A stretch of 64,000 nucleotides of DNA from Ignavibacteriota bacterium (GTDB taxonomy: Bacteria; Bacteroidota; Ignavibacteria; Palsa-1295). The position numbers and the translations under genes are program-made. This document shows, in pieces, positions 14,523-61,300 of the stretch. Numbering within the stretch: position 1 is the first letter of the stretch; each line of letters opens with the position of its first letter. The stretch spans positions 130,180-194,179 of the forward strand of contig PLYO01000029.1 of NCBI GenBank assembly GCA_003151825.1, given 5' to 3'. Under the pieces are notes generated by a model. That model saw nothing but the letters and a program-made list of their open reading frames with translations, did no database searches and was not told the origin of the DNA.

Positions 14523-14563
14523 TTGATTTGAGCCGTCATCAGCACTTGATATTTACTTGAACT

Positions 14564-25368: not shown

Positions 25369-25500
25369 TCATTGCGAGGAGAAGGAATCGACCCGCATGA
25401 TCGGTCATGCGAGGGAGATTCCTTCGACGAAGCAATCCGTTCAAGTTCAGCACAATCTTCGGAGATTGCTTCGTCGTCCCTCCGGGACTCCTCGCAATGA
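25369..25500. repeat. TCATTGCGAGGAG inverted repeat element
   Basis: A 132-bp element bounded by TCATTGCGAGGAG and its complement, with an inner GGAGATTCCTTCGACGAAGC / GCTTCG...GGAGATTG pair. The left half contains an 18-nt hairpin (25394-25411, CGCATGATCGGTCATGCG) of the family found mostly at 43-59 kb. It lies between the divergent cysteine desulfurase-like gene and pheT and has no coding capacity. Confidence 0.85.
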
Positions 25501-43404: not shown

Positions 43405-44584
43405 GGCTTCCTTTCGCCACGATTTCTTTAGCCGAAGACGTGCGCCGCAAATCTTCGAGGACTGTGGGAACGAGTTTTTCGAGGCGCGCCGTAAAGTCCC
43501 GTCGTTTTTCGTCGATGCTCGAACGCTCATCGACCGGCGCCTGAAACAGCGGGACATCCTTCAGATAAAAGTGCGGCTCCGCATCGTCGGCGATGCGGCC
43601 TTTCGATTTAGCGCCGGGCATCCTTTCGCCAGCCACGACGATGGCGCGATGCTTCACCTTCTCGCGCACGAGTTTAAGCATCGCCGGAAGGGAATCATGC
43701 TCGAGTGCTTCCAGCGAAGGGGTCAAAAAAATAAATTCCGAGAACTCGCCGCGCGTAATAGCCTCGTTAATTCCGGACGCTTCGAGCACGAGCGCGGCGC
43801 CATCGCGAATTTCCGCGCCAAGAAAAGCCGAGAGGCCAAATTCAATGGCGCTCGGGCTTAAATCTTTGAGAGAAGGATGGATGCCGGTATCGCGTCGGAT
43901 GATTTCGGCGAGTTTTGCAAGATCGTTGTCAGGTTTCTGGTTTTCAATGCTTTCGCCGGCGCGTGCGATAAAAATTCTGGAACTTAGTAATGAAAAACTT
44001 CGGGTCGAAGCGTCAACTTTTGCTATACGTGAAATATCCGCGTATGACCGATCATGCGCGGTGCCAGGCAGAATGAAATCCATCTCCTTATCGGATGCGT
44101 CGAAAAACTTTACTCCGAGCGCGGCAGCCGCGCCAAGTCCTGCATCGCATGCCAGAGGTTCTTCGAGTCCGAGAAGGATAGAGAATGCTCCTTCATCCAA
44201 AGCGTCTTGAATTAGTTCACCGATACCGGCGGTTGTTCCGGAATCTCCAGCGTGTTGCACACGGGCCACACGGGACATCTCGATCACGGCAAGTTTTCCA
44301 TCTTCCCCGGCGAATCCTATCGGAACGACGATGTCCTTTCCCCGTGCATCCTTCGCCTCGACTTCGAGAAAGGAGCCGAGCGTGTGCGTGACGAGGAAAT
44401 CAATCGTTCCAACGCCGCCATCCACGATGGGGAGTTGAATCAGGTCGGAACTTTTAAGCGAGCGATCATGCGTGCGAATGCTTCGCGCGAGTTGCGATAC
44501 CGCCTCGGTTGCATCCCATATTCCGGGGATGGGCAGGGCGGCTGCGAGAATTTTTCCGTGCAGAATGCGCGTATGATCGGTCAT
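43397..44584 (-). CDS. Glycerate kinase-like protein (GlxK/GarK family, divergent)
   Basis: 395 residues. The frame resembles type I glycerate 2-kinases: VSQLARSIR...IQLPIVDGGVGTIDFL, a central GIGELIQDALDEGAFSILLGLEEPLACDAGLGAAAALGVKFFD corresponding to the GLGGSATNDGGAGMLQALG region, and C-terminal helices. The highly conserved GGSATND is replaced by LEEPLACD, so kinase activity is doubtful. The start codon itself lies in an 18-nt hairpin (44570-44587), and two more copies lie in the coding sequence (44041-44058, 43580-43597). It precedes the GTG of the YfiM-like gene with an 8-nt overlap. Confidence 0.65.
   Translation of the reverse strand: MTDHTRILHGKILAAALPIPGIWDATEAVSQLARSIRTHDRSLKSSDLIQLPIVDGGVGTIDFLVTHTLGSFLEVEAKDARGKDIVVPIGFAGEDGKLAVIEMSRVARVQHAGDSGTTAGIGELIQDALDEGAFSILLGLEEPLACDAGLGAAAALGVKFFDASDKEMDFILPGTAHDRSYADISRIAKVDASTRSFSLLSSRIFIARAGESIENQKPDNDLAKLAEIIRRDTGIHPSLKDLSPSAIEFGLSAFLGAEIRDGAALVLEASGINEAITRGEFSEFIFLTPSLEALEHDSLPAMLKLVREKVKHRAIVVAGERMPGAKSKGRIADDAEPHFYLKDVPLFQAPVDERSSIDEKRRDFTARLEKLVPTVLEDLRRTSSAKEIVAKGSRA
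43580..43597. repeat. 18-nt hairpin, B type (CG core)
   Basis: CGCATCG-TCGG-CGATGCG, perfect 7-bp stem, extended by flanking C/G pairs to 43579-43598. It lies in the glycerate kinase-like gene, translated as RIADDAEP. Confidence 0.8.
44041..44058. repeat. 18-nt hairpin, A type (GA core)
   Basis: CGTATGA-CCGA-TCATGCG: a 7-bp stem with one wobble-type change (T opposite G). In the glycerate kinase-like gene, translated as AHDRSYA. Confidence 0.75.
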
Positions 44585-44587
44585 GCG
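44570..44587. repeat. 18-nt hairpin, A type, containing a start codon
   Basis: CGTATGA-TCGG-TCATGCG. The minus-strand ATG of the glycerate kinase-like gene (44582-44584) is inside the stem, and the element encodes MTDHTR. It also covers the gap to the GWxTD gene, which ends at 44591. Confidence 0.8.
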
Positions 44588-44590
44588 TTT

Positions 44591-46216
44591 TCAGCGATCC
44601 CAGATAAAAGTCCCCGGCGCGGGAAAAGCTCCCTGAAGACGGTAATCGCCGAGCATGTATTCATCCACAAAAGTATATCGTGCGCCGAGGCCGGAATATT
44701 CCCAAACTTCATACGGCCGCTGCATCGATTCGGACGTATGGCTATCGATGGCATCGGGTGCGCCGAGCGCAAGGTACACGCGCCCACGATCGCTCTTCCA
44801 ACCGGGTTGAAAGCTCGTGCCAAAATGGGCGTTGGCATATTCTACTCTGGCATAAAATACGCCCATCGGCCGGCTTGCATTGCTAAAAGCATCGTGGTCG
44901 ATGCGGTTTTCGCTTTGCACTTTTGCCGCAAGCAATTTTTGGTTCCAAAACTCGACGACGGCATTATGCTTTTCTTTCGGTGTTTGGGCATTCGAAAGCG
45001 AATCCCACTCGGCGCCCGTTGCAATGAATCGCAATTGCGCGATAGCCTGATCGAGATCGGTCACGGAAGCAGGAATTCCTCTGGCGATGCGAACGAAAAT
45101 CTTGCGCTCGGACCACGCGAGTGCGCGCTGGGCAAGCATCGCCGGATCGGTAATACTGGTATCGCTCGAGGCCGGGAGCACATAAGTGGTAAGGGTGTAA
45201 TGTCCGGACCATAAGCCGTCAAATTGCAATGGAATAAAGAGCGGCATTTCGGGAATCGCCGCCGGAGCCATCAGTCCCACGCCATTGACGTGAGTCGTCC
45301 GCAGCACGGAGGTGACTCGCATCGGTATAATTCGTTCGGTATCCGATGCATCCTTTTTAGGTTCGATGATTTCCGTCACGACGCTCAGCGTGGAATCGGG
45401 CGGCATGTTATAGAGCGCGGCAAAAATACCACCTTGACGAACATTGTCAACGATGCGGCTCATCCCCGCATTCTCGTTCGTGTTCCCCACCAGTTCCGAA
45501 ACGTCCGGCCCGATGGAGGGAACGATATTCATTCCCGCATGATCGGTCATGCGGCGCTCGCCATAAAGGAGAAGGTCGCTCATCATGGGTCCGGCGCCTG
45601 AGAAGCTTTTGACATGGAAGGCAATGCTCGTATCGTATTCATTCCGCGACGAGAGATCGCGTATGCTCAAACGCAATTGGTAATCCCTTCCCGAATGACC
45701 CGCATCCGAGACCTTTAAAGGGTCTCGGCCGACGATGCTCATCATGCGCGCCGTATCGCCGGTGATGCGGCTCATACTTGGCGCCATGAGAAACGAAATT
45801 TGTTGTGCATCCGCGCGGCCCGCATCGTCAACAATGCGGGTGTGTCCGCGAGCGCTGCGGTCTTCATGTTCACCGGCTGTTTCGAGCGTGGTAAAGCTCT
45901 CGTAATGATCGAGAAGAATTACATCGTCTGCGGTTACTTGGACTCCGACGGAATAATCGGCCACATATCGATCGACCGCATAAAGAAAATCGAGCGACGC
46001 ATACGGAACAGCGATATAGACATCCACCCGCGTGCTGTCCAAAGCATCGCCGACGATGCTCGGGCCTTGGAACTGTAGCACGTCGAATACCGCGCGCGGC
46101 GCTTTCGTAGTAATTTCTTCGCCGCGAGTTGCGCCAGGCATTCTTCGCTGCTGCCCCATGAGTACAGATGCGGAGCCAAAGGCAAGGAGGCAAACAACGA
46201 GGATCGTTCGGAGCAT
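44591..46216 (-). CDS. GWxTD domain protein, exported
   Basis: 541 residues from ATG 46216 (MLRTILVVCLLAFGSASVLMG, signal peptide), 13 nt after the rimO stop; the longer frame to 46315 overlaps rimO. The C-terminal ~160 residues carry the GWxTD hallmarks: WDSLSNAQTPKEKHNAVVEFWNQK, FYARVEYANAHFGTSFQPGWKSDRGRVYLALGAPDAID and YEVWEYSGLGARYTFVDEYMLGDYRL. The N-terminal part is beta-rich and unassigned. At least three hairpins of the 18-nt family (45536, 46043, degenerate 45821 and 45752) and one TTTAAA palindrome (45706) are translated within it. Confidence 0.8.
   Translation of the reverse strand: MLRTILVVCLLAFGSASVLMGQQRRMPGATRGEEITTKAPRAVFDVLQFQGPSIVGDALDSTRVDVYIAVPYASLDFLYAVDRYVADYSVGVQVTADDVILLDHYESFTTLETAGEHEDRSARGHTRIVDDAGRADAQQISFLMAPSMSRITGDTARMMSIVGRDPLKVSDAGHSGRDYQLRLSIRDLSSRNEYDTSIAFHVKSFSGAGPMMSDLLLYGERRMTDHAGMNIVPSIGPDVSELVGNTNENAGMSRIVDNVRQGGIFAALYNMPPDSTLSVVTEIIEPKKDASDTERIIPMRVTSVLRTTHVNGVGLMAPAAIPEMPLFIPLQFDGLWSGHYTLTTYVLPASSDTSITDPAMLAQRALAWSERKIFVRIARGIPASVTDLDQAIAQLRFIATGAEWDSLSNAQTPKEKHNAVVEFWNQKLLAAKVQSENRIDHDAFSNASRPMGVFYARVEYANAHFGTSFQPGWKSDRGRVYLALGAPDAIDSHTSESMQRPYEVWEYSGLGARYTFVDEYMLGDYRLQGAFPAPGTFIWDR
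45536..45553. repeat. 18-nt hairpin, A type
   Basis: CGCATGA-TCGG-TCATGCG, identical to the copy at 25394-25411. In the GWxTD gene, translated as RMTDHAGM. Confidence 0.85.
45706..45728. repeat. TTTAAA-centred palindrome in the GWxTD gene
   Basis: CCGAGACC-TTTAAAG-GGTCTCGG, an 8-bp perfect stem translated as GRDPLKV. Compare 31834-31855 (DPLKG) and 51151-51172 (GPLNG). Confidence 0.7.
46043..46060. repeat. 18-nt hairpin, B type
   Basis: AGCATCG-CCGA-CGATGCT, a perfect stem in which the outermost pair is A-T instead of C-G (a compensated change). In the GWxTD gene, translated as SIVGDAL. Confidence 0.85.
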
Positions 46217-46229
46217 GATAAGCAAAAAA

Positions 46230-47600
46230 TCAAACGATGGACGCATCGTCAACGACGCTTCCTTCCAGTTCGTATTCACTTGCATTTGTGATACGCGCGT
46301 GAACAAACTCGCCAATCCCTATTTCCTTCATGGAAGCAATGCGGACTTCACCATCGACTTCCGGCGCGTGGGAAGCAGTACGTCCGTAATAAAACTCGCC
46401 ATCCTCTCCGAATTCTTTTCGTTCGATCAAGACGCGCTCGACGGCCCCAATCTTAGCGAGATTCTTGGAGAGCGAAATCCCGGCCTGAATATCATATAGC
46501 CGCGTCTGTCGTTGGAATTTTTCTTCGGATGGAATCGGATCGCCGAGCGGGTGCGCCGTCGTGCCTTCTTCTTGGCTGTAAGTAAAAACGCCGAGGCGGT
46601 CGAACTGCATCTGCTCGACAAATTCCTCCAACTCTTCGAATTCACGCTCGCCTTCAGCGGGGTAGCCGGTGATAAGCGTTGTGCGGAGCGCGATGCCGGG
46701 TATGCGCTCGCGGATTTTTGAAATGAGGTCTTCCGTTGCGCGGCGCGTAATGCCACGGCGCATGGATTTTAGCACTTCGGTCGAGGCGTGTTGCACGGGA
46801 ATATCGAGATACGGAACGATTTTTCCTTCGTCGGCCATCACGTCCAACAGATCGAGCGGGAACTTGGCGGGATACGCATACATCAGACGAATCCATTCGA
46901 TGGATGGAATGCGCGCAAGCCGCGTGAGGAGTTTGGAGATGGAACGATTCCCATAGAGATCGAGGCCGTAATTGGTCGAGTCCTGCGCGATGAGCACAAG
47001 CTCTTTCGCGCCATTCGCCGCCAGCATCATCGCTTCGAACTCCAACTCTTCCATTCCACGCGAGCGATGTCCGCCGCGCATGATCGGAATCGCGCAAAAC
47101 GAGCAGGGATGGTCGCAGCCCTCGGAAATTTTGAGATAGGAAAAATGCTTCGGAGTCGTTGGGAGGCGTTCGCCAAGCAGATTGTACTTTAAATCGAATT
47201 TTGATTCGGGAATAATAGCGGTGAGGATTTGCTCGAAATCCTGTGTGCCAAAGAAACGATCCACTTCCGGCATTTCCGCTTCTAATTCTGAACGGTAACG
47301 CTCGGAAAGACAACCCGCGACAAACACTTTCCGAATCATGCCCCGCTTCTTCAGTTCTATCGCCTCCAATATCGCGCCGATGGATTCCTTCTTCGCATGG
47401 TCTATGAAACCGCAGGTATTGATTATGACCGTCTCGGCGCGCTCCGCATCTTCTTCCAATCGAACTCCCCGGCGTGCAAGCATGCCGCCGATTACCTCCG
47501 AATCGACGGTGTTTTTCTCGCATCCTAAGGTAATAACCGCGACGCTCCGCGCATGACCGATCATGCGAGGCGGCGATGGATTAGAGCTGGTTTCTGACAT
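46230..47600 (-). CDS. rimO: Ribosomal protein S12 methylthiotransferase RimO
   Basis: Radical SAM enzyme that adds a methylthio group to the conserved Asp of S12. 456 residues. The N-terminal cluster cysteines lie in TLGCEKN, INTCGFID and VAGCLSERY; the radical SAM cluster is CDHPCSFC; the C-terminal TRAM domain ends near ARITNASEYELEG. EVDRFFGTQDF and LIAQDSTNYGLDLYG separate RimO from MiaB. Residues 12-18 (RMIGHAR), just before the conserved SVAVITLGCEKN, are encoded by an 18-nt hairpin, and the last residues VVDDASIV by a degenerate one. Confidence 0.94.
   Translation of the reverse strand: MSETSSNPSPPRMIGHARSVAVITLGCEKNTVDSEVIGGMLARRGVRLEEDAERAETVIINTCGFIDHAKKESIGAILEAIELKKRGMIRKVFVAGCLSERYRSELEAEMPEVDRFFGTQDFEQILTAIIPESKFDLKYNLLGERLPTTPKHFSYLKISEGCDHPCSFCAIPIMRGGHRSRGMEELEFEAMMLAANGAKELVLIAQDSTNYGLDLYGNRSISKLLTRLARIPSIEWIRLMYAYPAKFPLDLLDVMADEGKIVPYLDIPVQHASTEVLKSMRRGITRRATEDLISKIRERIPGIALRTTLITGYPAEGEREFEELEEFVEQMQFDRLGVFTYSQEEGTTAHPLGDPIPSEEKFQRQTRLYDIQAGISLSKNLAKIGAVERVLIERKEFGEDGEFYYGRTASHAPEVDGEVRIASMKEIGIGEFVHARITNASEYELEGSVVDDASIV
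47550..47567. repeat. 18-nt hairpin, A type, in the rimO N-terminus
   Basis: CGCATGA-CCGA-TCATGCG, perfect 7-bp stem, in frame in rimO as RMIGHAR between a variable N-terminal tail and the first conserved strand. Confidence 0.85.
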
Positions 47601-47711
47601 TACTTCGTCTTAACACGAGGTCACGCGCTCCGTTCCAAAATCAGGATTTTGCGGCCCGGCCACCAAAAATTACGTAATTTGCATTACGGATGACCCAGCG
47701 CCCCTGACTTT

Positions 47712-50700
47712 ATGCTCAAAAAAATCGCTTTTCTCGCTATTGGGATTGCTTTACTTGCGCCGTATCAACTTGCCGCGCAATCTGGCGTCGTCATCAATGA
47801 GATCATGTACGCGCCGCACAGCTCCGAGCCGGAATGGATCGAGCTGTTCAGTGCCGACACATCGAATTTCAATATAGCGCAATGGCAGATTTCTACAAGT
47901 ACGATGTCGGTAACATTGCCCATCAACTCGATTACCGCCGATCAAAATAAGCAATACATTGTAATCACGAATGATTCGATTATGCTTCGCGCAAAGAGGC
48001 CTGGCGACTACCCGATCGTGCAATGTGCGCTGCCCGCCTTAGATAGTACGGGCGATGAAATTGTGTTGAAGAATACGTCGCCTCAAACAGTCGATAGTCT
48101 TTATTACCTGCCATCCTGGGGTGGTTCAACCGGGGCATCGCTCGAACGAAGAAATGTTCTGAAAGCTTCTACGGACTCAACCAATTGGGGCACATGCATA
48201 GCGCCTTCGGGCGCGACACCGGGTGTGCGTAACAGCATCGCGACGCCGGACACCACACCAACGGTCACTGCTGCCCATCCGCTCGACATCGTGATAAACG
48301 AGATCATGGTCGAAGTCGTAAGCCCCGAACCGCAGTGGATAGAACTGCTGAACACCACGCCGGACACGATCAATATAGCTGGATGGACTCTGACGGTAAA
48401 AGGCCATGCGCCTGTCGTAATTCCACACACGAACACAATCATTCCCCCGGATTCCATGCAAATTCTTTCGAGCAACGATACCGTGCTGGCGCAATACCGA
48501 AAAATTCCCATCCCGCGTATCGTTCAATTGAGCCTTCCACATATGGATTATGGCGGCTCGACGCTCGCGCTTCGCGACGCGTTTGGGAATCTTATTGATA
48601 GCGTTTATTACGATGGTACCTGGATAAAGGCGGATGGTATTTCCCTCGAGCGGATCGATCCTGCGACCGTGGGATATGATTCAACCAATTGGGGTGCTTG
48701 TGTAGATTCAAGCGGCTCGACCATCCTCCGGCCCAATTCCGACCGCATACGGGATTACGATCTCGCACTCTCCAGCGCGCGGCTGACCGATACCTCTGTT
48801 ACAATTACCATTGTGAATATGGGCCGTGATACGATCCAGCATACGGCAGTAGCGCTTCAAATTGGGACGTTCGATACCATCGTTCAGCAAGTATCGATTC
48901 TTTTGCCGAGCCATGATTCGCAGGTAGTTCAGTTCCCGCTGCCCGATAATTTCTATGGCTTGTTCCCTGCCACGGCTTACCTCATAGATTCTTTAGACAA
49001 GAACCCCGCGAACGATACGCTGCGATTTAGTGTCGCGCCGCCCATCCCACCCGACAGCATCGTCATCAATGAGATCATGTTCGGTCCGAAACCCACCGGA
49101 TGCCAGTGGTTGGAACTTTATAATCTTTCGGCCAAATGGATTTCGATGGATTCGGTGCGGCTCATTACCGGCGAGTCGCGCCCTGGAGAATATTCGCACA
49201 TTATTCCACAGCTCGTAATCCCTCCCGATTCGTTTGCCCTTATCACGGCCAATGATTCCATTTACACCACCTATCCATCCCTCGTGGGACGAAGTGGCAT
49301 CGCGTCCCTTAGTATCTCCTCGCTCGATTTTGGGAAGGACTCGTGCTTTGTCGTCCTGCACAATGAGGATTCTACGACCATTGACTCAGTCCATTACTTT
49401 AAAACCTGGCAGCAAAGCCTGCTCACAAAGACGTTCGTGGGAATTTCTTTAGAACGCAAGGATCCACGTGGCGCAAGCAACGATCCCGGGAATTGGCAAG
49501 CCTCGCTCGACACGTTGGGGGCAACGCCGCTTGCTAAAAATTCGGTTGGGGTAGGGAACTATGATCTTGCGCTTACGACCGCGCGCCTAACGGACACAAC
49601 CGTCATCATTACCATGGAGAATGTGGGCAGCGATACGGTACGGCATACGGCGCTCGCGCTTCACATTGGGACGTTCGATACCATCGTTCAGCACGTATCG
49701 ACTCTTCTGCCGAGCCATGATTCGCTCGTGGTTCAGTTCCCGCTGCCCGATAATTTCTATGGCTTATTTCCCGCAACGGCTTACCTCATAGATTCTTTAG
49801 ACAAGAACCCTGCGAACGATACGCTGCGCTTTAGCATTGCGCCACCTATTCCGGCAGATAGCCTCGTCCTCAACGAAATCATGTTCGATCCGCAGCCAAC
49901 CGGGTGTGAATGGCTGGAACTTTACAATCTTTCAAACAAATGGGTTTCGATGGATTCCACGCGGCTTATTACCGGCGAGACGCGTCCGGGTGAATATACG
50001 CACGTCATTCCACCGCTCGTGATCGCTCCCGATTCGTTTGGCCTCATCACGGCAAACGATTCGATCTATCGTACGTATCCCACGCTCGTGGGCCGAAGTG
50101 GCATTGCGTCGCTTCGTATCTCCTCGCTCAATTTGGGCAAGGACTCGTGCTTTGTCGTTTTGCACAATTTGGATTTGTCCACGATAGACTCCGTCCATTA
50201 TTTTAAAACCTGGCAACAGAGCATGCTGAAAAAGACTTTCGCGGGAATTTCTTTAGAGCGCAAGGACCCACGCGGCGAGAGCAACGATCCCAGCAATTGG
50301 CGCGCCTCGCTGGAAGACAGCGCAACACCACTCGCGCCAAACTTAGGCGATACTTCTTCCACCCCCTCTACTCCGCCAGCCGGGACGGTATTCGCGGCGA
50401 GCTTTTCTCCCAATCCATTTTCGCCGGATGGCGACGGCTTCCAGGACACGAGCACGCTCACCGTCCAAACCCCATCGTCGGCGATGGGTGGAAACAGCAC
50501 GGCGTGGTCGATGCGCGTCCGAATTTATGACGCGCATGGAAGAATGGTCCGCTTGTTAACGGATGCAGCAACGATTCTCGGCTCGGCGAAACTTCCGTTC
50601 AATGGAAAACGAGACAACGGGCAGACCCTCCCGCCGGGGCTTTACACCGTCCTCATCGAACTTACGTCCCAAAGCCCGCTTCAGACATTGAAGCAAGAGA

Positions 50701-50732: not shown

Positions 50733-50820
50733 ACCATGATTTGGGGCGATTTTAGAGATTAAGGAGATGATTTCTATCCAATCTCTTTAATCTCTAAAAT
50801 CGCCCCAAATCATGGTTCAG
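50729..50820. terminator. Bidirectional terminator-like inverted repeat (GAACCATGATTT family)
   Basis: Arms of about 38 nt: CTGAACCATGATTTGGGG... from 50729 and its complement ending at 50820. The left arm contains the TGA stop of the LTD gene, and the right arm ends 4 nt before the stop of the convergent T9SS gene, so it is placed to terminate both. The sequence belongs to a dispersed family (8184, 12758, 60871-60971). Confidence 0.75.
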
Positions 50821-50824
50821 ATTT

Positions 50825-53800
50825 TCAATGCGCCAGAATCAACTCCTGCGAGAAAACATTGCCGCCGGAGGCAAGGCGCAGGAAATAGGTTCCGGCCGGC
50901 AGCGTGCTTACGTCGAGTGAAACTTGATAATCGCCCTGCTTTTGTACTTCGGCGACTAAGGTCCGTACTTTTTGGCCCAGCTCGTTATAGAGTTCGAGCA
51001 TGACCGGTGCTTCGGTGGGAACTGTATAATTGACGATCGCGGAACTCGATGCTGGATTGGGAATGAGCGGTTCGATCGAAAGGTACGTCGGCTTAAATGG
51101 ATTCACCCCTACGATTGTCGCGCAGGAATCCATAAAGACGACCTCGCCGCCCAGGCCATTTAAAGGGCCTGGATTCAGCCGTCCCGAAGGTGCGGGCAGT
51201 GTTGCGCTGTAGTTCGCGCCGGAATTAATAGAATCGTTACCGCCGTTATAAATCACCGCTGCGCCGCATTGGTCGGTATCGATGACGATCTGTGCTTCCT
51301 CCACGTCCGTGCTTCTTGCGCCGGAAAAACGCAAGTAAACTAGCGTGTCTCCCTTATCCAAATCCGTAAGCGCAGGGCCTTGTCCCGTTATCGTATAACC
51401 TCTAGGTAATCCACTTGGCGCCGACGCGACCGTCCAACCCGCGAGCATCGGCGGATTGACTGTTCCCGCAAAACTCAGAAGATTGCTGCCCGTCAAGTGG
51501 AAAGTAAATTGATATTGGTAAAGACCCTTCGTGCTAAGCGCGAAGGTATCCGTTGGAATGAGATAGACGGGCACCTTCCAGGTCTTTGGAGTCGTATCGA
51601 TGCCGGAAGCTTTCATCGCAAGATCCTGCTTATAGAGCCATACGTTCAGCGAATCGGTATGGATGGTCTTCGTCAAGGGATTCGGCGACTGCCAGCCAAA
51701 GACATCCAATGCAAACAGACGCCCGCGCGCCGATTGATTCGGGTCGACGAGTGGCAAATGGAAGGAAAGCGAAGACGCGCCCGAATCTTTTTCATAAAAC
51801 GGCTTGAAGTTGGCCGTGTTGGCGGTATCTAACCATACAGAATAAATTCCGCGGTCATGCAGACGAATATCCGTCACCGTAACGGCCAGTGAATCGCAGG
51901 TTGGCGAAACGGTTACGATCGCTGGCGTAGTATCCACCTCGAGGGGATACGTCCAGCAGAACGTATCGTTGGCAATGGGGGGGGGGCAAAGAGAATTACC
52001 GGCTCCATCGATGGCGTTCCAGCATATCGTGGGCACCGAGTCTTCCGACAAGGTGTCCGTCACGAAAAATATCACGGTATCCCGGATCGGGAACATTGGC
52101 GGGCCTTTTCCGAGAGTACCTTCCTTGATGAATGCAGGGACTGGCTTATTTTTGCCGTGATAATTCATCGTCATATTACTCACGTTGGAGAACCAGATGG
52201 AGTCGATGCCCTCATCGTAGTGAATAAGGGGATGAAAATCCGAAAAGACCACCATGATGGAGTCGGGGGTCAATTGGAAGAGCGTGTCCGTTGGGCAGTA
52301 GATATCCACCAGAGCGGTCGTGGAGTTCTGTCCTGCTACGTCAGCGTTACCCGCGCAATCGAATGCCTGGATAGTGAAACTGGCTGCTGCGAAGGTGTCG
52401 ATGATCTGAATATCGAAATAGAACGTGTCCGAGCATGTGCTGGACGGATGAAGGCCCCAGGTGTTATTGTCGATTTTAGTAATTTTCACCGACGCATCTC
52501 CAACAGGCATGCAATTCGTGACAAGCGTGAGCAGCACGGAGTCTATGCCACGGTCCCACGGCCGCTTTTCGCTCACGCCGACCTGCCATTCCTTGCGGAG
52601 CGAATCCACGAAGACCGTGACCAGAGGTGGGTTCGTATCGGGTACCGTGCAATAGGCGATCGTGTCGAGCGAGCTATGTCCCACGGAATCCACCGCGCGA
52701 ATGATGATAGTGCCATCCAGCATCGAATCGTGGACGCAGACGGTGAAAGAATCCTCCTTCATGCCATGCTGTATGGGCGCGAGCAGCGTGAACGTCATGT
52801 TGACCGAATCAACCACGATGAGAGAGTCCAGTCCGCTATCGTGCTGGCGGCCAGGAGGTGGTTCCACCACAGAATCCGTCACCGACCATTTGCTGCATTG
52901 GAATTCGCACGGGGCTTTCGTCGTATCGCCGAAATTATGATTGGTGCTGTCTAAGAGATGGAAACGGGGCGGAAGGGTATCGAAAATGCCCGGCGGCAGG
53001 CACGCATCGAAGCAGAGAGTATCGTAGCTGATATTGGATGGGCTGGCGCAATCCTTATAGATAAGATAGACGCAGGACGAAATAAGCGTATCGACCTGCG
53101 TGATGCTCACCTGCACGCTATCTTTGTTGTCGCATGGGGTAAATGTCCCAATGGTGACTTTATCCGCATTCGCGGGGACGATCTGCGAGATTATAATGGA
53201 ATCCACCCCCAGATCGTGCGGGCGATTATCATAGACGGAATCGATGTAGGTCGAGTAACGGCCGCAAGAATTCAATACTCCTACGCCCACGTGTGGCGTA
53301 TGGCCCGGCGCCAATACGTCCTTCTCTTGACAATCGATAACGATGGGGCAGGAACAGGCGCCGGTGAAGAAAATAGGGGTTCCCACGCCGGATGCTGTAA
53401 CGTTCAGCGTGATATCGTAGCTCGAATCGGTCGAGCAATTGACGAGAACGCCCTGGAGAATCGTGTCCTCCCACGAAATGGAAGAAGACGCATGCGGCTG
53501 AATCGTCCCCGCGTTGGTCAATTTATGGGTCTGCGTGTCGCCACTCGCGCTAACAGGCAGAGGAGAAACAATTCTGGCAGGCCCGGACAATCCAGAAATA
53601 CTATTCGCAATTATCTGCGTGCCGGTAGCAGGGTTCGCCTCGGTGTTTTCCGGATTCCAAACGATGGCATCGACCGGAAAGTGATTTGGAATATAGGTGT
53701 TAAGAGGCGGGCCACTCCAGATAATGTGGTCTGGATGAAACATCATCGCATCGAGAAATCCAAGGCACAACGGAGTGCATGCCGGCGTACCATAGCTGCC

Positions 53801-54730
53801 GCGGCCAAGCTCCAGGGTATCGCCGGCACCCACCCCGCTGCCGGACCACTGGATGAGCAGGGCTTCATCCGTAGCCGCACTTGGTGGCGAGGCCGGAAAT
53901 CCCCATGTATAATCGGGAGTGCCAATCAAGATCGTCGGCAAGTCAACGAAGGTAAAGGTTGCGGGCTGCATAAGGCCCATCGGCTCGGGCGCGAGACTGT
54001 CGTTATTATATCCTACCCCCATTCCGCCGGGAAGGCCTCCATCGTACCCAGGGAAATTTTTATTGCCAAGGGGGTACAAGGTCGCTATATAATACGGCGG
54101 GATAACCGGGAACGAATACCAATTGTTGACGTACCCATACCGGGTGGTTATCGGCGCATTATCATTCCCAGTGTCCGGTGTAGAAATCTCTACATCGAGC
54201 AGGTATTGCGCCTGTGCCGGCAAAAAGGTATTCTCGTGATTGCGAATGCTGAACTTAAAAACAATCTGTCCGGAGTTGGCAAGTGTGAACGCGACCGGAT
54301 AAATATCCTGAACGATATCGAAAGCAGTCGGTCCTGCGGGCTGCCAAACGGTTTCGATGGTATCCGCGATTTTTTTCGTGCGACCTCCCTGCAAATAGGC
54401 GGTCGGGTTCGTTGGCAGCGGGCCGGGACCGGTAAGCGGAAGATACGTATTGTTGGTATAATACTTGCCATTCACGAGAACGGTGAGGTAGGACGTATTC
54501 GCGGGGTGGGTGAGAGTGGCCGCGTGCCTGTTGAGAGGTCCGTAAAAAATACGAACCAAGCCCTGCCCATCGCCCGAAACGTCCGCCTCGACGTAGGCAT
54601 TGCTCGTTTCCAAGCTCTGCGCGTGCGCGGGGATCGAGCAGGCAAGAAGGGCCAGGGCAAGCCCTATCCGCCGACCTCGGAAAGAGCGAGCGATCCGTCC
54701 ATCGAACGAAGAAAGAAACGTAAGGAGCAT
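50825..54730 (-). CDS. Very large T9SS surface protein with repeated Ig-like domains
   Basis: 1301 residues with a signal peptide (RIGLALALLACSIPAHAQ). The N-terminal ~330 residues (SNAYVEADVSGDGQGLVRIFYG) are a unique module. The middle has at least five copies of a ~130-residue domain marked by D-x-G-[IVL]-(D)S: HDLGVDSIII, HDSGLDSLIV, WDRGIDSVLL, YDEGIDSIWF and HDRGIYSVWL. A cohesin-like stretch (QYQFTFHLTGSNLLSFAG...DTLVYLRFSG) and a T9SS sorting domain (LIPNPASSSAIVNYTV ... NVFSQELILAH) follow. The coding strand has a C10 tract (51977-51986). Last gene of the operon with 55625-57601 and 54776-55609. Confidence 0.85.
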   Translation of the reverse strand: MLLTFLSSFDGRIARSFRGRRIGLALALLACSIPAHAQSLETSNAYVEADVSGDGQGLVRIFYGPLNRHAATLTHPANTSYLTVLVNGKYYTNNTYLPLTGPGPLPTNPTAYLQGGRTKKIADTIETVWQPAGPTAFDIVQDIYPVAFTLANSGQIVFKFSIRNHENTFLPAQAQYLLDVEISTPDTGNDNAPITTRYGYVNNWYSFPVIPPYYIATLYPLGNKNFPGYDGGLPGGMGVGYNNDSLAPEPMGLMQPATFTFVDLPTILIGTPDYTWGFPASPPSAATDEALLIQWSGSGVGAGDTLELGRGSYGTPACTPLCLGFLDAMMFHPDHIIWSGPPLNTYIPNHFPVDAIVWNPENTEANPATGTQIIANSISGLSGPARIVSPLPVSASGDTQTHKLTNAGTIQPHASSSISWEDTILQGVLVNCSTDSSYDITLNVTASGVGTPIFFTGACSCPIVIDCQEKDVLAPGHTPHVGVGVLNSCGRYSTYIDSVYDNRPHDLGVDSIIISQIVPANADKVTIGTFTPCDNKDSVQVSITQVDTLISSCVYLIYKDCASPSNISYDTLCFDACLPPGIFDTLPPRFHLLDSTNHNFGDTTKAPCEFQCSKWSVTDSVVEPPPGRQHDSGLDSLIVVDSVNMTFTLLAPIQHGMKEDSFTVCVHDSMLDGTIIIRAVDSVGHSSLDTIAYCTVPDTNPPLVTVFVDSLRKEWQVGVSEKRPWDRGIDSVLLTLVTNCMPVGDASVKITKIDNNTWGLHPSSTCSDTFYFDIQIIDTFAAASFTIQAFDCAGNADVAGQNSTTALVDIYCPTDTLFQLTPDSIMVVFSDFHPLIHYDEGIDSIWFSNVSNMTMNYHGKNKPVPAFIKEGTLGKGPPMFPIRDTVIFFVTDTLSEDSVPTICWNAIDGAGNSLCPPPIANDTFCWTYPLEVDTTPAIVTVSPTCDSLAVTVTDIRLHDRGIYSVWLDTANTANFKPFYEKDSGASSLSFHLPLVDPNQSARGRLFALDVFGWQSPNPLTKTIHTDSLNVWLYKQDLAMKASGIDTTPKTWKVPVYLIPTDTFALSTKGLYQYQFTFHLTGSNLLSFAGTVNPPMLAGWTVASAPSGLPRGYTITGQGPALTDLDKGDTLVYLRFSGARSTDVEEAQIVIDTDQCGAAVIYNGGNDSINSGANYSATLPAPSGRLNPGPLNGLGGEVVFMDSCATIVGVNPFKPTYLSIEPLIPNPASSSAIVNYTVPTEAPVMLELYNELGQKVRTLVAEVQKQGDYQVSLDVSTLPAGTYFLRLASGGNVFSQELILAH
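51151..51172. repeat. TTTAAA-centred palindrome in the 1301-aa gene
   Basis: CCAGGCC-ATTTAAAG-GGCCTGG, 7-bp stem, translated as NPGPLNGL. Third member of the TTTAAA family. Confidence 0.65.
51977..51986. repeat. G10 homopolymer in a surface-protein gene
   Basis: Ten consecutive G on the plus strand (C10 in the coding direction) encode the proline run in LCPPPIAND. Tracts of this length are classic sites for slipped-strand mispairing. Confidence 0.9.
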
Positions 54731-54754
54731 CAGAGAATATCGAGGAGCGCGCGG

Positions 54755-54772
54755 AGCATCGTCGGCGATACG
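54755..54772. repeat. 18-nt hairpin, B type, intergenic
   Basis: AGCATCG-TCGG-CGATACG, with two decayed outer pairs, in the 45-nt gap between the beta-barrel gene and the 1301-aa gene. Confidence 0.7.
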
Positions 54773-54775
54773 TGA

Positions 54776-55609
54776 TTAATTTAGCTGAAATTTGATGAGG
54801 GCCGATGCGTACAGCGACCCGATTTTCCAATTCGAACCCGGCACATTACCGGCTGCCGTGAGCGGGAAATCGTATGTCAGAAGCGGAGAAAATATCGAGC
54901 GTTCGGAAACTTGAATATTATACCCCGCCGAAAGCAACAGCCCCAAACGGAGCGAACTTGCTTCGTTCGGCCCGGATTGAATTACCTGTGTGAGCGTACC
55001 GTTGGTGAAGGTTACGTTATTGATTGCAGGGTTGCCATTCTCTGCCGGAACGGTTGTACCCGATGGTAGTTCCCTGTTCTGAGTTAAGCTGTTAGCCGTT
55101 AAAAAACCAATATCGAGTCCTGCCTGTACAAACGGTCCCATACGGTAAAATTGATACTGAGCGTAGGGCGCAAAATCGATGTACGTCGCTTTGATGTTAG
55201 CGGTATTAAGATCGTAAACTCGAGCCGTTTCATTTCCGCTATCTGGAAGTTGTACATCGACCACTTCATTGTTCGAGGTGGTCGTCGAGAAATTTTTGAA
55301 GTCGATACCGCCTTTAATGCCGATAGCCCATTCGTAATCGAGCGGGAGTTCGAAGAAAATTTGGCCAAGGAATCCCTTGCCGGTCCCACCGGTAAACGTA
55401 GAGCCGCAATCGCAGAGGAGATTTCCCATCTCGGCATGCTGGCCAAGGCCAATTTCGATGCCGGCCATCGGTGGGGGGGCGCCAGGACCGAATAGATCGC
55501 CCCGGCTCAATATCTGCGCGTGGGCCGCAGGCAGGGATGCCTGCGCCACGACGACGAGGACAAGAGCGGAAAAACGCTTTATCATTTTATATTTCATACG
55601 TGCCCGCAT
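54776..55609 (-). CDS. Outer-membrane beta-barrel protein
   Basis: 277 residues. A signal peptide (MIKRFSALVLVVVAQASLPAAHAQ) is followed by alternating amphipathic strands typical of small porin-like barrels (WAIGIKGGIDFKNF, TYIDFAPYAQYQFYRMGPFVQAGLDIGF, LRLGLLLSAGYNIQV, IGSLYASALIKFQLN with a terminal aromatic-type strand). The N-terminus is uncertain: M1 at 55609 lies in an 18-nt hairpin; ATG 55597 or 55585 would give a cleaner signal peptide. It lies 16 nt after the OmpA/PD40 gene and before the giant T9SS protein, so the three are probably one envelope unit. Confidence 0.75.
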   Translation of the reverse strand: MRARMKYKMIKRFSALVLVVVAQASLPAAHAQILSRGDLFGPGAPPPMAGIEIGLGQHAEMGNLLCDCGSTFTGGTGKGFLGQIFFELPLDYEWAIGIKGGIDFKNFSTTTSNNEVVDVQLPDSGNETARVYDLNTANIKATYIDFAPYAQYQFYRMGPFVQAGLDIGFLTANSLTQNRELPSGTTVPAENGNPAINNVTFTNGTLTQVIQSGPNEASSLRLGLLLSAGYNIQVSERSIFSPLLTYDFPLTAAGNVPGSNWKIGSLYASALIKFQLN

Positions 55610-55622
55610 GATCGCTCATGCG
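55605..55622. repeat. 18-nt hairpin, A type, at the beta-barrel gene start
   Basis: CGCATGA-TCGC-TCATGCG, perfect stem with a variant loop. It covers the first annotated codons of the beta-barrel gene and most of the 15-nt gap to the upstream OmpA gene. Confidence 0.8.
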
Positions 55623-55624
55623 CG

Positions 55625-57601
55625 TTAGTCCTTTCTTCCAACGATTTGTACTTCCACGCGGCGGTTTTTCGCTAAATTATTCGGATCGAGCGGCTGTGAT
55701 TTTCCGAATCCCTGCACCACGGCAATCTGCTCGCGAGGAACGCCCTGATCGAGCAAGTAGTCCGCAACCGCTTTCGCGCGATTCTCGGAAAGCACCTGAT
55801 TGAGGCCTTCGGAGCCTGTTGAATCGGTATGGCCATTAATTTCGAAACGGACTTCGGGATTTTCTTTTACTTGCCGGATGAAGTCAGGAAATTTCGCAAG
55901 TTCTTCGGGCTTGATATCATATTTATCGACATCGAAAAAGATCATAAATCCCTGCACGGCCTCCGGCGTGAGCCGAATTTCTTTTTGGATCGAGATGAGC
56001 CGTTCTCGTGCAGCGGGAACGTCGATCTTATCTTCGTAGGGCTGGTAATCGGGAACCTTTGATGAAATGCGATAAGAGATCAATGGATTCACATTAAATG
56101 TGAACGCGCCGGTCGCGGGATCGGTCTGGACAGAAACTGGCGGCACGGCCCCGGCCAGTTGTTCAAGCACTACGGTAGCTTTGAGCGGAGCCTTGTTATA
56201 CGAATTTATCACGTGCCCAAAAATCCGCGCGTGCGATGGCGTAAGGGAAATATCCTGCGTGATGACAGGCTGAACGTCGGTAGGAGGCGCCTGAATTTCG
56301 AGCGAATTAGAAACGTAATTCTCTGCCCCAGCGCCGACATGCACGAGGCTTCCGGCAAGCACCTTCACGCTGTATGCAGGCCCCGTGGCATCGTTCGAAA
56401 GAAGCATCGTCGGCGATGCGGGCTGGCCGTTGTTCGAAAACGTAATGGCGATTTCCGGCTTTGTCGTGATCGGCTGGTTCGTCTCGGCATCGAGGATGCG
56501 TCCCGTGAGTGTTACATACTTTGGCTTTGGTGGCGCGGGCTGGACATAGAGGCGATAAAGATCGTAGCCGCCTTGCCCGCCCGGACGATCGCTCGAAAAA
56601 AAGACGGCATCCTCACCCTGGGGAATATAAAAGAACAGCTCGTTATCTTTCGAGTTTACCGCCGGACCAAGATTTTTCGGTTCGCTCCATTCATTTTCGC
56701 CGTTGCGGTGCGTAACGTAAATATCGTATCCGCCCATGCCGCCTGGAAGATGATCCGCCGCAAAATAGAGCGTTTGATTGTCGCGAGCGATGAAGGGCGA
56801 CGTCTCGTTGCCACCCGTATTGAAACTCAGGTTGACCGGCGTGCCCCATTTCCCGTCCACCGACTTCGAGCACATATAAATATCGACTCCGCCATGCCCG
56901 CCTTTACGATCACTCACGAAAAAGAGCAACTGCCCGTCCTGGCTGATGCAGGGCTGGGCATCCCACCATTCGGAATTGATTGGCGCAGCAAGTGGGGTGA
57001 GGTTATCGAGTTTGCCATCGATGATCTGACCTTGATAAATATCGCAGGACCCAAGGATGCCATCGGGCCGGTTGCATATTCCGACGACGGCAGTCACGCC
57101 ATCGCCGGCAATCGAGAGCGAACTGATGTTTTCCTTACCGGGCAGCTCCGAAAATACTTCCGGAGGACCGAAGTGCGCAGCGCGATCGTTCGCATTGGTC
57201 GGGGAAAGGCGCTTGGTTACGTAAAGAATTTGTTTGCCCGATCGCGAACTGGTAAAGTACATCGAGCCGTCCGCGGAAATAAACATCGTGGCGTCGTCGC
57301 CCTGCGAATTGAGGTCCGATAAATTTTCGAGACGGACATCATCCTTGGCGGCGCGAAGGACTTTGTTCGTGCTCGAATCGGGGATTGCCATTGCCGACGA
57401 TGGGGGTTGTGCTGCGAGCGGGCGCGCGGCAAGGAGCGCAACAAACGCCGGCGCCAAAAGCAATAAAACGCGCGCGAAAAAGCATCGTCGGCGATGCTGA
57501 AAAGAGTAGAGGTCAGGCCAAATAGCATCGGCGACGATGCGTGCGGCTCGTCGCGGGCTGCGTCTCGGAAGCGTCAGTTGTGGCATCGATTGCAATCGCA
57601 A
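55625..57601 (-). CDS. OmpA-family protein with PD40 repeats
   Basis: 658 residues. After a signal sequence (RVLLLLAPAFVALLAARPLAAQ, about residues 45-66) come PD40/WD40-like blades (GSMYFTSSRSGKQILYVT, GQLLFFVSDRKGGHGGVDIYM, QTLYFAADHLPGGMGGYDIYV, DAVFFSSDRPGGQGGYDLYRL), two carboxypeptidase-regulatory-like domains (YVTLTGRILDAETNQPI, RIFGHVINSYNKAPLKATVVL) and an OmpA peptidoglycan-binding domain (FDVDKYDIKPEEL ... INGHTDSTGSEGLNQVLSENRAKAVADYL). Resembles PorE/SprE-like proteins but lacks TPRs. The N-terminus is abnormally long because two 18-nt hairpins are translated ahead of the signal peptide. Confidence 0.88.
   Translation of the reverse strand: MRLQSMPQLTLPRRSPRRAARIVADAIWPDLYSFQHRRRCFFARVLLLLAPAFVALLAARPLAAQPPSSAMAIPDSSTNKVLRAAKDDVRLENLSDLNSQGDDATMFISADGSMYFTSSRSGKQILYVTKRLSPTNANDRAAHFGPPEVFSELPGKENISSLSIAGDGVTAVVGICNRPDGILGSCDIYQGQIIDGKLDNLTPLAAPINSEWWDAQPCISQDGQLLFFVSDRKGGHGGVDIYMCSKSVDGKWGTPVNLSFNTGGNETSPFIARDNQTLYFAADHLPGGMGGYDIYVTHRNGENEWSEPKNLGPAVNSKDNELFFYIPQGEDAVFFSSDRPGGQGGYDLYRLYVQPAPPKPKYVTLTGRILDAETNQPITTKPEIAITFSNNGQPASPTMLLSNDATGPAYSVKVLAGSLVHVGAGAENYVSNSLEIQAPPTDVQPVITQDISLTPSHARIFGHVINSYNKAPLKATVVLEQLAGAVPPVSVQTDPATGAFTFNVNPLISYRISSKVPDYQPYEDKIDVPAARERLISIQKEIRLTPEAVQGFMIFFDVDKYDIKPEELAKFPDFIRQVKENPEVRFEINGHTDSTGSEGLNQVLSENRAKAVADYLLDQGVPREQIAVVQGFGKSQPLDPNNLAKNRRVEVQIVGRKD
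56403..56420. repeat. 18-nt hairpin, B type
   Basis: AGCATCG-TCGG-CGATGCG in the OmpA/PD40 gene, translated as QPASPTM in a carboxypeptidase-regulatory-like domain loop. Confidence 0.8.
57481..57541. repeat. Two 18-nt hairpins in the OmpA/PD40 5' coding region
   Basis: AGCATCG-TCGG-CGATGCT at 57481-57498 and AGCATCG-GCGA-CGATGCG at 57524-57541 (variant loop). They are translated as QHRRRCF and IVADAI between the annotated start and the signal peptide. A third, partial hairpin (CATCG-TGGG-CGATG, 57642-57655) lies upstream of the gene. Confidence 0.8.
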
Positions 57602-57760
57602 TAGTCCATGAAGAACAATACTCAGCGTCCAAGGGGCGAATCATCGTGGGCGATGCGGCAGACGCTGAATGCAGCATTCGGGGCCTCGGACTTTCCGAAA
57701 CCTTGGGCAGTATAACAATGGAAAAGGAAAAGCGTTTCGGGCAAAATCGTCATTACGAAA

Positions 57761-58933
57761 TTATTGCCGGCATGCCGTCGTAAAGGTAAACGCATACGCG
57801 CCGAAGCTCGGCGTCGAAGCCGTGAGCTTGAGGGTATGACGCCCGAATCCCGCGTTATTCGTAATGCGGTACATGCGCGCCTCATGGACGGCGATAAATG
57901 TTTTTCCGTCCGATTCCTCGATGTCCGCGCCGCGATCCGCTTTGGGTACGGGCTTTCCATCTTGCGTTACCATCACTTTAAAGTCTGTCTCTGACAGCGG
58001 ATGAACAACAAGATTCGCTTCCTTGGCTTGATAATCGAAAACGAGGCTTGCATCGCCTTCCCCGCTCGGCTGCGCGTATTCGTTGCGCACGGTCCATTTG
58101 CCGGCCAGATAGAGCGCATCCTTTTTCAACGTGCCCGGAATGGTATACTCGTGAGCTTTATCGTTCGCGGATTTCATCTCATTTCCGAGATTATTCCGCG
58201 CGAATCCGATATACGTTTCTGGTGTCGGGCGGTAACAGACCGCGCCCGGCTTATCCGTCTCGCGGACAGGCGCGAGCGGGACGGGCACGTCGATCGAACT
58301 ATCGCGTTCGAGCAGAATTTTTTGGAGGAATGCTTCGAAGGCTTCGTAATCGCCTTCGCCGAAATGCTCGGCGCGAAGAACGCCGTTTTTATCGAAGAGA
58401 TATTTCGCCGGCCAGTATTGGTTTGCGAGCGAATTCCAAATCTCGTAATCGTTATCGGCAATGATTGGATAATCGAGACCGAATCCTTTCACGGCGCTGT
58501 CCAAGTTTTTCGAATCTTTTTCGAATTCAAATTCCGGCGCATGAACGCCGATCATTACCAATCCCTTGTCCTTATACCGGTCGTTCCACGCTTTAATATA
58601 AGGAAGCGTTTGAATGCAATTGACACAGGTATAGTCCCAAATATCAATGAGGACGACTTTGCCCTTCAGCGAATCGCGAAGATATTCGGGCGTGACGTTA
58701 ATATAACGATCGGGCGCATACGTGAGCGGCAGCGGCGGCATGTGAATATGCTGGCCGGAAACGTCCTCGATTTGTTTGGCAAGCGCAGCGCGCATCGCCG
58801 ACGATGCTCGCTCGGGTGGGAATTTATCGCTTGGCACGCTCTGGCCCTTTCCGCATGAGGTGATAACAAAACTACTTACGACGACGAGCAGCCACTGGCT
58901 TGCTCGGAACCGACGGTTTACCGCGAGAGACAT
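57761..58933 (-). CDS. DipZ-like thioredoxin-family lipoprotein
   Basis: 390 residues from ATG 58933, preceded by a good Shine-Dalgarno (AAGGAG) 6 nt upstream; the longer frame is not used. Lipobox at C27 (SFVITSC). A TlpA/redoxin domain has the active-site CVNC (C103, C106) in IWDYTCVNCIQTL and the cis-Pro region YWPAKYLFDKNG. The C-terminal ~170 residues (YIGFARNNLGN, LYLAGKWTVRNEYAQ, LVFDYQAKEANLVV) match the DipZ C-terminal carbohydrate-binding-like domain. Probably a cell-envelope thiol-disulfide reductase. An 18-nt hairpin is translated near residues 42-48 as ASSAMRA. Confidence 0.87.
   Translation of the reverse strand: MSLAVNRRFRASQWLLVVVSSFVITSCGKGQSVPSDKFPPERASSAMRAALAKQIEDVSGQHIHMPPLPLTYAPDRYINVTPEYLRDSLKGKVVLIDIWDYTCVNCIQTLPYIKAWNDRYKDKGLVMIGVHAPEFEFEKDSKNLDSAVKGFGLDYPIIADNDYEIWNSLANQYWPAKYLFDKNGVLRAEHFGEGDYEAFEAFLQKILLERDSSIDVPVPLAPVRETDKPGAVCYRPTPETYIGFARNNLGNEMKSANDKAHEYTIPGTLKKDALYLAGKWTVRNEYAQPSGEGDASLVFDYQAKEANLVVHPLSETDFKVMVTQDGKPVPKADRGADIEESDGKTFIAVHEARMYRITNNAGFGRHTLKLTASTPSFGAYAFTFTTACRQ
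58791..58808. repeat. 18-nt hairpin, B type
   Basis: CGCATCG-CCGA-CGATGCT in the DipZ-like gene, in the linker between the lipobox and the redoxin domain. Confidence 0.8.
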
Positions 58934-61206: not shown

Positions 61207-61300
61207 GACATGGCGTGGCTCCGCCACTTGGTCGGGCTGGAAGCGCCGACCTACGCGAAAAAATAATTTTGGATTTCCTTGCTTTCGGGTTTTGGATGTG

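What the first reader, a model, noticed from the sequence alone, without database searches (positions are those of the whole stretch)
43580..58808. Family of 18-nt hairpins (CGCAT-NN-TCGG-NN-ATGCG) with covarying stems, mostly inside genes
At least 13 copies share a 7-bp stem and a 4-nt loop. A-type (stem ...GA/TC...): 25394, 44041, 44570, 45536, 47550, 55605. B-type (stem ...CG/CG...): 43580, 46043, 54755, 56403, 57481, 57524, 58791. The two innermost stem pairs differ between types in a fully compensated way, the outermost pair switches C-G/A-T in 46043 and 57481, and the loop is TCGG or its complement CCGA in nearly all. Degenerate copies lie at 45752, 45821, 57642 and 63255. Twelve of the 13 clear copies lie within 15 kb. 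Conservation of structure over sequence suggests that the folded DNA or RNA is the unit of selection or mobility. It recalls the Rickettsia palindromic elements that insert in reading frames, but is shorter.
Basis: partly seen in the sequence, partly recalled or inferred. Interest (0 to 1): 0.8.

Follow-up and report, generated by a model that had tools for sequence, protein, structure and literature searches.

The report
Tiny 18-letter hopping DNA hairpins
An 18-letter DNA hairpin, in two fixed versions, occurs well over a hundred times in this bacterium's genome, often inside genes at places where related species have nothing; it looks like one of the smallest kinds of mobile DNA, and what moves it is not known.

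Summary
The hairpins are real and far above chance. All 13 clear copies lie at the stated coordinates. The 3.59-Mb genome holds 61 copies of CATGANCGNTCATG and 66 of GCATCGNCGNCGATGC; reversed control patterns give 0 and 0. The B arms are spaced by 4 nt at least 66 times but by 5-16 nt only 25 times in all. Two stems dominate, GCATGA/TCATGC and GCATCG/CGATGC, so the 'covariation' is a difference between two fixed families. In B the outermost pair does not covary (17 of 64 paired).

The copies are insertions. At six of ten window sites aligned to syntenic orthologues, the hairpin lies in an in-frame insertion of 15, 18 or 21 nt absent from every aligned relative. Twelve filled/empty pairs inside the genome show net +15 to +21 nt without a consistent target duplication. 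About a fifth of copies (23 of 114) sit in larger REP-like hairpins. Same-genus species carry the same stems with other favoured loops.

Best reading: an ultra-short non-autonomous mobile hairpin, working like cyanobacterial small dispersed repeats. The mobiliser is unknown: Y1 transposases are present but not linked; no reverse transcriptase was found.

The parts
25394..25411 (.). A-type hairpin, intergenic, in the loop of a REP-like host hairpin upstream of pheT
   Evidence: empty paralogous host GACCGCAGGGAG vs filled, net +16
43580..43597 (.). B-type hairpin in glycerate kinase gene (reads RIADDA on the minus strand)
   Evidence: stretch of variable length in relatives, insertion not resolved
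44041..44058 (.). A-type hairpin (one stem position changed) in glycerate kinase gene (reads AHDRSYA)
   Evidence: 21-nt in-frame gap in 7 of 7 relatives (two of them one codon shorter still)
44570..44587 (.). A-type hairpin (one stem position changed) at the start of the glycerate kinase ORF
   Evidence: N-terminus not alignable, inconclusive
44888..44905 (.).
   Evidence: variable-length stretch, inconclusive
45440..45457 (.). degenerate B-like copy in the GWxTD gene
   Evidence: lies in a stretch longer than in relatives
45536..45553 (.). A-type hairpin in the GWxTD gene (RMTDHA)
   Evidence: +15 nt in frame versus 8 of 8 relatives
45752..45769 (.). degenerate copy (RITGDT) inside a stretch of about 29 residues absent from relatives
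   Evidence: absent from 8 of 8
45821..45838 (.). degenerate B copy (RIVDDA) in the GWxTD gene
   Evidence: +21 nt in frame versus 8 of 8 relatives
46043..46060 (.). B-type hairpin in the GWxTD gene (SIVGDA)
   Evidence: +15 nt versus G004, G005, G006; +6 to +12 versus the other five
47550..47567 (.). A-type hairpin in the N-terminus of the RimO-like radical-SAM gene (RMIGHA)
   Evidence: N-terminus not alignable, inconclusive
50471..50488 (.).
   Evidence: 18-nt in-frame gap in 7 of 7 relatives (wider net +15 against two)
54755..54772 (.). B-type hairpin with one stem position changed, intergenic
55605..55622 (.). A-type hairpin overlapping the start of the outer-membrane-protein ORF
   Evidence: inconclusive
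56403..56420 (.). B-type hairpin in the PD40/OmpA gene (reads ASPTML)
   Evidence: +18 nt in frame versus 3 of 3 relatives
57481..57498 (.). B-type hairpin near the 5' end of the PD40/OmpA ORF, possibly leader
   Evidence: not alignable, inconclusive
57524..57541 (.). B-type hairpin near the 5' end of the PD40/OmpA ORF, possibly leader
   Evidence: not alignable, inconclusive
57640..57657 (.). B-stem copy with loop TGGG and outer mismatches, between the PD40/OmpA and thioredoxin-like ORFs
58791..58808 (.). B-type hairpin in the thioredoxin-like gene (reads ASSAMR)
   Evidence: +18 nt in frame versus the single alignable relative (1 of 1)
   Evidence: not tested against relatives

Best explanation
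This is a family of ultra-short, non-autonomous mobile DNA elements. The unit is an 18-nt hairpin with a 7-bp (A) or 6-bp (B) core stem and a 4-nt loop, in two stem subfamilies. Copies are added at new sites as about 18 nt of DNA, without a consistent target-site duplication, often with a few target bases lost or changed. Frame-preserving insertions are tolerated in genes and read as whatever hexapeptide the frame gives; others lie between genes, and about a fifth of all copies examined lie in REP-like host repeats, typically in the host hairpin's loop. Shown here: repetition, insertion (filled and empty sites), lack of a consistent target duplication, copy-number and loop differences between species. 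Inferred: that the unit moves as a folded single strand (ssDNA hairpin), and that an enzyme acting in trans copies it. The best-known enzymes of this kind are HUH/Y1 transposases of the IS200/IS605 and RAYT type (recalled), but the link to them is only a guess (about 0.25).
For: Genome counts 61 and 66 with controls 0 and 0; B stem with any loop and up to one mismatch 198 against 3. Spacer fixed at 4: B arms with spacers 5-16 total 25 over twelve lengths (control 2) against at least 66 with spacer 4; in the window, GCATGA and GCATCG arms occur 4 and 8 times, all with spacer 4. Six of ten orthologue-tested window sites are clean in-frame insertions against every aligned relative, in syntenic loci. 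Twelve filled/empty pairs inside the genome, net +15 to +21, including a palindrome with a copy in one arm only and a nearby paralogous stretch, both +18. B in two reading frames among coding-scored copies (15 and 7) and a second A frame in glycerate kinase 44041, against a peptide motif. Same stems in same-genus genomes with other favoured loops, CCCA in G002 and GCGA in G005 and G006, and adjacent pairs 18-19 nt apart in G005 and G006. The five tested 18-mers fold as hairpins in single-stranded DNA, z -3.0 to -4.2.
Against: No movement was observed. The relatives are about 65-76% identical in RimO protein, so orthologous insertion edges are approximate, and four of the ten sites were not clean (46043 varies, 45752 sits in a larger insertion, 43580 and 44888 inconclusive). 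Most within-genome empty sites are paralogous repeat copies whose loops vary anyway. No mobiliser is linked. Flanking inverted repeats are enriched overall (10 of 113 above a cut that 2.5% of permuted pairs exceed) but not at coding sites (0 of 28), so targeting of hairpin loops is not general.
Confidence: 0.78

Rival explanations
1. Replication or repair errors, not a dedicated enzyme: short hairpins are copied by template switching or captured as single-stranded scraps at breaks, so they multiply passively wherever DNA is single-stranded.
For: No consistent target duplication, small losses at the junction, copies in hairpin loops, adjacent copies 18-21 nt apart.
Against: Essentially two stem sequences have spread, on at least 31 of 51 contigs, and the same two recur in other species; passive copying should spread many hairpins.
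Confidence: 0.3
2. Ordinary REP/REPIN repeats moved by RAYT transposases.
For: Short palindromes in many places, Y1 genes in the genome, presence inside REP-like host repeats (23 of 114 by word search).
Against: GTAG within 12 nt in 2 of 113 (background 0.028) and CGTC in 6 of 113 (background 0.084); most copies stand alone (11 gaps under 500 nt among 114 copies); no copy with a family loop in the fetched Y1 surroundings; shorter than the 20-40 bp of REPs (PMC3733652 abstract).
Confidence: 0.12
3. Binding sites for a chromosome-organising or regulatory protein that arose by selection, like other short palindromic genome motifs.
For: Palindromic, fixed arms and fixed spacer, many copies.
Against: Sites are inserted blocks at positions relatives lack; the syntenic relatives' stretches hold no copy at the window's positions; loops differ by species.
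Confidence: 0.06
4. Footprints or minimal deletion derivatives of a larger transposon whose inverted ends are GCATGA or GCATCG.
For: Two end types and a near-perfect palindrome would fit two fused inverted ends (inference; stems).
Against: Nearly constant 4-nt loop and no consistent target duplication. No larger element with such ends was looked for.
Confidence: 0.1
5. Chance, codon bias or a shared peptide motif.
For: Several copies read as IVGDA-like peptides.
Against: Controls 0 and 0; different frames and intergenic copies.
Confidence: 0.01

Closest known systems
Small dispersed repeats (SDRs) of Nostoc and other cyanobacteria (Elhai et al. 2008, Genome Res; paper not held; known from citing passages and recall)
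   Same: About 20 bp, dispersed, described by a citing paper as possibly mobile (PMC2884548, passage); one, SDR5, inserts precisely within a target (PMC4390886, passage); hairpin form recalled.
   Different: Other phylum (inference) and sequence not compared; no single target sequence seen here; two stem subfamilies; loops differ by species; in-frame gene insertions documented here.
Rickettsia palindromic elements (RPE) (recalled; RPE-1 in a Rickettsia gene mentioned in PMC3733652, passage)
   Same: Palindromic repeats inserted in frame in unrelated proteins as well as between genes (recalled).
   Different: RPEs are about 100-150 bp (recalled); these are 18 nt with no other sequence.
REP and REPIN repeats with RAYT transposases (PMC3116915 and PMC3733652, passages and abstracts)
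   Same: Short palindromes, high copy, some found inside genes (PMC3733652).
   Different: No GTAG or CGTC tag, mostly lone copies, not found beside the Y1 genes, smaller than 20-40 bp.
Bacterial MITEs (recalled)
   Same: Non-autonomous, palindromic.
   Different: MITEs have terminal repeats of a parent transposon and usually a target duplication; no consistent duplication here and no parent was looked for.

Membership tests
REP/REPIN | GTAG or CGTC tetranucleotide at one end of the palindrome | tested here: not met
   2 of 113 and 6 of 113, at or below background
REP/REPIN | Unit occurs predominantly as doublets | tested here: not met
   11 gaps under 500 nt among 114 copies; of these 18 and 21 nt are adjacent copies and 98 and 99 nt are copies in two neighbouring host REPs
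REP/REPIN | Copies flank a RAYT (Y1) gene | tested here: not met
   six Y1 matches in G000, no copy with a family loop in the five fetched stretches that hold them (one B-arm hairpin with loop GCTC about 2.4 kb from one)
Small dispersed repeats (cyanobacteria) | About 20-bp dispersed hairpin with evidence of insertion | tested here: met
   the family's definition is from recall and citing passages
Small dispersed repeats (cyanobacteria) | Sequence relation to the cyanobacterial SDR families | not tested
   SDR sequences not at hand; no cyanobacterium among the 50 stretches
Rickettsia palindromic elements | Palindromic insertions in frame inside protein genes | tested here: met
Rickettsia palindromic elements | Length around 100-150 bp (recalled) | tested here: not met
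   insertions of 15-21 nt
MITE | Target-site duplication | tested here: not met
   exact flanking repeats rare (for example 4 nt, 2 of 113 against 0.86 and 0.65 permuted); small excesses of 1-2 copies at 5 and 7 nt
Known RNA family (Rfam) | Match to a described RNA | tested here: not met
   two matches in the window at gathering score, neither at a copy

The most novel reading that the evidence does not exclude
The smallest self-contained mobile DNA unit described: an 18-nt single-strand hairpin that inserts into other DNA, in part into loops of other hairpins, through a dedicated but unidentified enzyme, and steadily adds hexapeptides to proteins. Its stem is the recognised part and its loop is free to diverge between species.
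Probability: 0.3. Interest if true: 0.85.

Novelty: new variant of a known kind. Interest (0 to 1): 0.62.

Why it matters
It is close to a lower size limit for a mobile DNA element and shows clear filled/empty sites, including in-frame gains of about six residues. The genus has species with high and low copy number, two stem types and different favoured loops, so the open question of what moves such tiny repeats becomes testable by comparing genomes and by changing stem or loop. It is also a route by which proteins gain short peptides.

Tried and rejected
Loose pattern scan with two mismatches: not discriminating. Chance and codon bias: rejected. Continuous stem covariation: rejected, essentially two stem types; my first figures for loop length and stem type came from stretches chosen around 4-nt-loop copies, so I repeated them on the window alone and genome-wide in part. 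RAYT link by flanking copies: not found. Reverse transcriptase: PF00078 gives 0 matches in G000 and in five of the other seven genomes searched, so it is not the mobiliser here unless missed in the incomplete assembly. Target duplication and REP tags: none consistent. Hairpin-loop targeting as a general rule: seen in host-repeat cases, not at coding sites. Other families of the class: 8 genomes with 1-7 matches each, mostly mixed arms. Taxonomic name: not obtained; the genome collection scan may leave out the own genome and near records; gene content (T9SS sorting domain, GWxTD) suggests the Bacteroidota/Chlorobiota side, which is inference. Literature: the listings showed no description of this family; they cover only the held open-licence library. 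Not done: search for a larger element bounded by these arms; comparison of strains of one species; G002 in-gene copies against their orthologues; the letters of the matches in G001 and G003 and of the unlisted tails in G002 and G006 were not seen.
Full report
What was checked. All are in the sequence at the given coordinates; three have one stem position off the consensus. In the whole genome (3,593,072 bases, 51 contigs; the window is C43:130180-194179) CATGANCGNTCATG occurs 61 times and GCATCGNCGNCGATGC 66 times; the reversed patterns occur 0 and 0 times. With one mismatch and any loop the B stem gives 198 places against 3.

Anatomy. In the window, GCATGA/TCATGC arms with spacer 0-14 occur 4 times and GCATCG/CGATGC arms 8 times, always with spacer 4. 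Genome-wide, B arms with spacers of 5 to 16 nt total 25 (control 2) against at least 66 with spacer 4. In 310 kb of this genome chosen around copies the spacer is 4 in 42 of 45 and 58 of 61 cases (biased by the choice). Favoured loops are CCGA/TCGG, then GCGA/TCGC and TCGA for A; CCGA/TCGG, then CCCA and GCGA for B. In 77 stretches (382 kb) I found 114 distinct exact copies, 50 A and 64 B, on 31 contigs. Inner two-pair types: only these two in the window and in the chosen stretches; genome-wide, the eight types beginning with A or T give 25 pattern matches (control 14), one of them fully paired by eye. Six further types were not searched genome-wide. The outermost pair is Watson-Crick in 34 of 50 A and 17 of 64 B copies, so B is a 6-bp hairpin with loosely chosen outer bases. 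Among hairpins with one changed pair, 28 lack a Watson-Crick pair and 6 have another one. The five tested 18-mers fold as hairpins as single-stranded DNA, four with 7 pairs and one with 6.

Insertion between species. The window's gene order is kept in other genomes of the genus and family. Codon-level alignment of ten sites (residue level): PD40/OmpA gene 56403, 18 nt extra versus 3 of 3 relatives; thioredoxin-like gene 58791, 18 nt versus 1 of 1; lamin-tail gene 50471, an 18-nt gap in 7 of 7 (a neighbouring one-codon difference makes the wider net +15 against two of them); glycerate kinase 44041, a 21-nt gap in 7 of 7 (two relatives are one codon shorter still); GWxTD gene 45536, 15 nt versus 8 of 8, and 45821, 21 nt versus 8 of 8. 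Site 46043 is +15 against three relatives and +6 to +12 against five. Site 45752 lies in a stretch of about 29 residues absent from 8 of 8. Sites 43580 and 44888 lie in variable stretches and are inconclusive, as are the N-terminal sites 44570, 47550, 55605, 57481 and 57524. Conversely, G006 has three A copies just after its lamin-tail gene, where the loose scan finds nothing in the window between 50568 and 51961.

Insertion within the genome. BLAST of joined flanks found an empty-looking site for 21 copies; some short matches there are weak. Twelve pairs were verified letter for letter: net +15, +16, +18, +18, +16, +15, +18, +18, +18, +16, +21, +17 (anchors chosen by eye). The clearest are C21:54266, where one arm of a large palindrome has the copy and the other does not (+18), and C25:75695, with a nearby paralogous stretch (+18). 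Three copies in one host-repeat type (C27:85481, C34:5414, C38:158104) are probably one insertion spread with its host. Exact flanking direct repeats are rare (4 nt: 2 of 113 at either boundary, permuted 0.86 and 0.65; 3 nt at the 18-nt boundary: 6 against 2.28, permuted maximum 7; one or two copies in excess at 5 and 7 nt), so there is no consistent target duplication; a few bases at the target are often lost or changed.

Where copies lie. 28 of 114 score as coding (soft threshold, an undercount), with B in two frames (15 and 7) and A in one (6); A has TGA in a third frame, and 44041 uses the remaining one. By a word search 23 of 114 lie inside REP-like host repeats, typically in the host's loop in the cases aligned. 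Inverted repeats directly flanking copies are enriched overall (10 of 113 against 2.5% of permuted pairs) but not in coding sites (0 of 28). Copies cluster: 9 strict copies in the finding's 15.2 kb against a maximum of 7 in 3000 random placements, and outside this contig four gaps under 100 nt against 0.2 expected and 32 under 10 kb against 20.8 (total contig length approximated).

Distribution. GCATNNNCGNNNATGC gives 142 in this genome against 10-32 in six same-genus genomes. With GCATSRNNNNYSATGC G001-G006 give 28, 50, 18, 10, 30 and 49 (controls 1-3). Listed matches show the same A and B stems with other loops: mainly CCCA on the B stem in G002, GCGA on the A stem in G005 and G006; G004 has three B-stem matches, two with CCCA. 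The letters for G001 and G003, and the tails of G002 and G006, were not listed. In other genera of the family counts are 3-20; G007's 20 include seven B-stem matches, all with different loops, more than the naive expectation, so a low level outside the genus is possible. Eight genomes of other families of the class have 1-7 matches, mostly mixed arms. An 18-mer A pattern over the collection of 84,980 species gives 50 stretches, one place each, in scattered taxa with a run of Xanthomonas (the list may be capped and own or near records left out). So the expansion is a feature of this genus, strongest in this genome among those examined.

What moves it. Y1 transposases (PF01797) number six here and 5-11 in each of the six same-genus genomes, so they do not track copy number; the five fetched stretches that hold the six matches contain no copy with a family loop (one B-arm hairpin with loop GCTC lies about 2.4 kb from one). 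GTAG and CGTC tags are not enriched. No reverse transcriptase (PF00078) was found in this genome. My reading is a non-autonomous single-strand hairpin copied in trans; the insertion is shown, the intermediate and the enzyme are inferred. Passive copying by replication or repair is the main rival.

Relation to known things. It works like small dispersed repeats of cyanobacteria, known to me from citing passages (PMC2884548; PMC4390886) and recall, and like Rickettsia palindromic elements in its in-frame insertions (recall; PMC3733652 passage). It fails three defining tests of REP/REPIN. I therefore call it a new variant of a known kind.

Noticed in passing
window 14397-14523, 16186-16309, 25369-25500, 59538-59662; many loci: REP-like host repeats with constant outer arms (GTCATTGCGAGGAG.../...GAAGCAATC and GTCATCCTGAGCG.../...TCGAAGGATC) whose middle stem differs from copy to copy yet stays largely complementary, often in inverted pairs.
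   Followed up: partly
window 61182-61228: Rfam match to Acido-Lenti-1 RNA (RF01687), 40.7 bits against a gathering score of 37.
   Followed up: no
window 45670-45790 (GWxTD gene): A stretch of about 29 residues absent from eight relatives that seems built of several decayed hairpin copies.
   Followed up: partly
L137 (G002) 1491 and 4707; own C25:75695, C22:65392, C5:37687: Several copies fall in or just after what look like signal peptides, perhaps a tolerant landing place (by eye).
   Followed up: no
L123 (own C43:47500-57000): Two short Y1 transposase-like genes within 2 kb of each other, with no family hairpins in the 9.5-kb stretch.
   Followed up: partly
L046, L048, L050, L052, L053, L055, L056: The order GWxTD gene then glycerate-kinase-family gene beside rimO is kept in seven relatives, so this gene order is old.
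   Followed up: no
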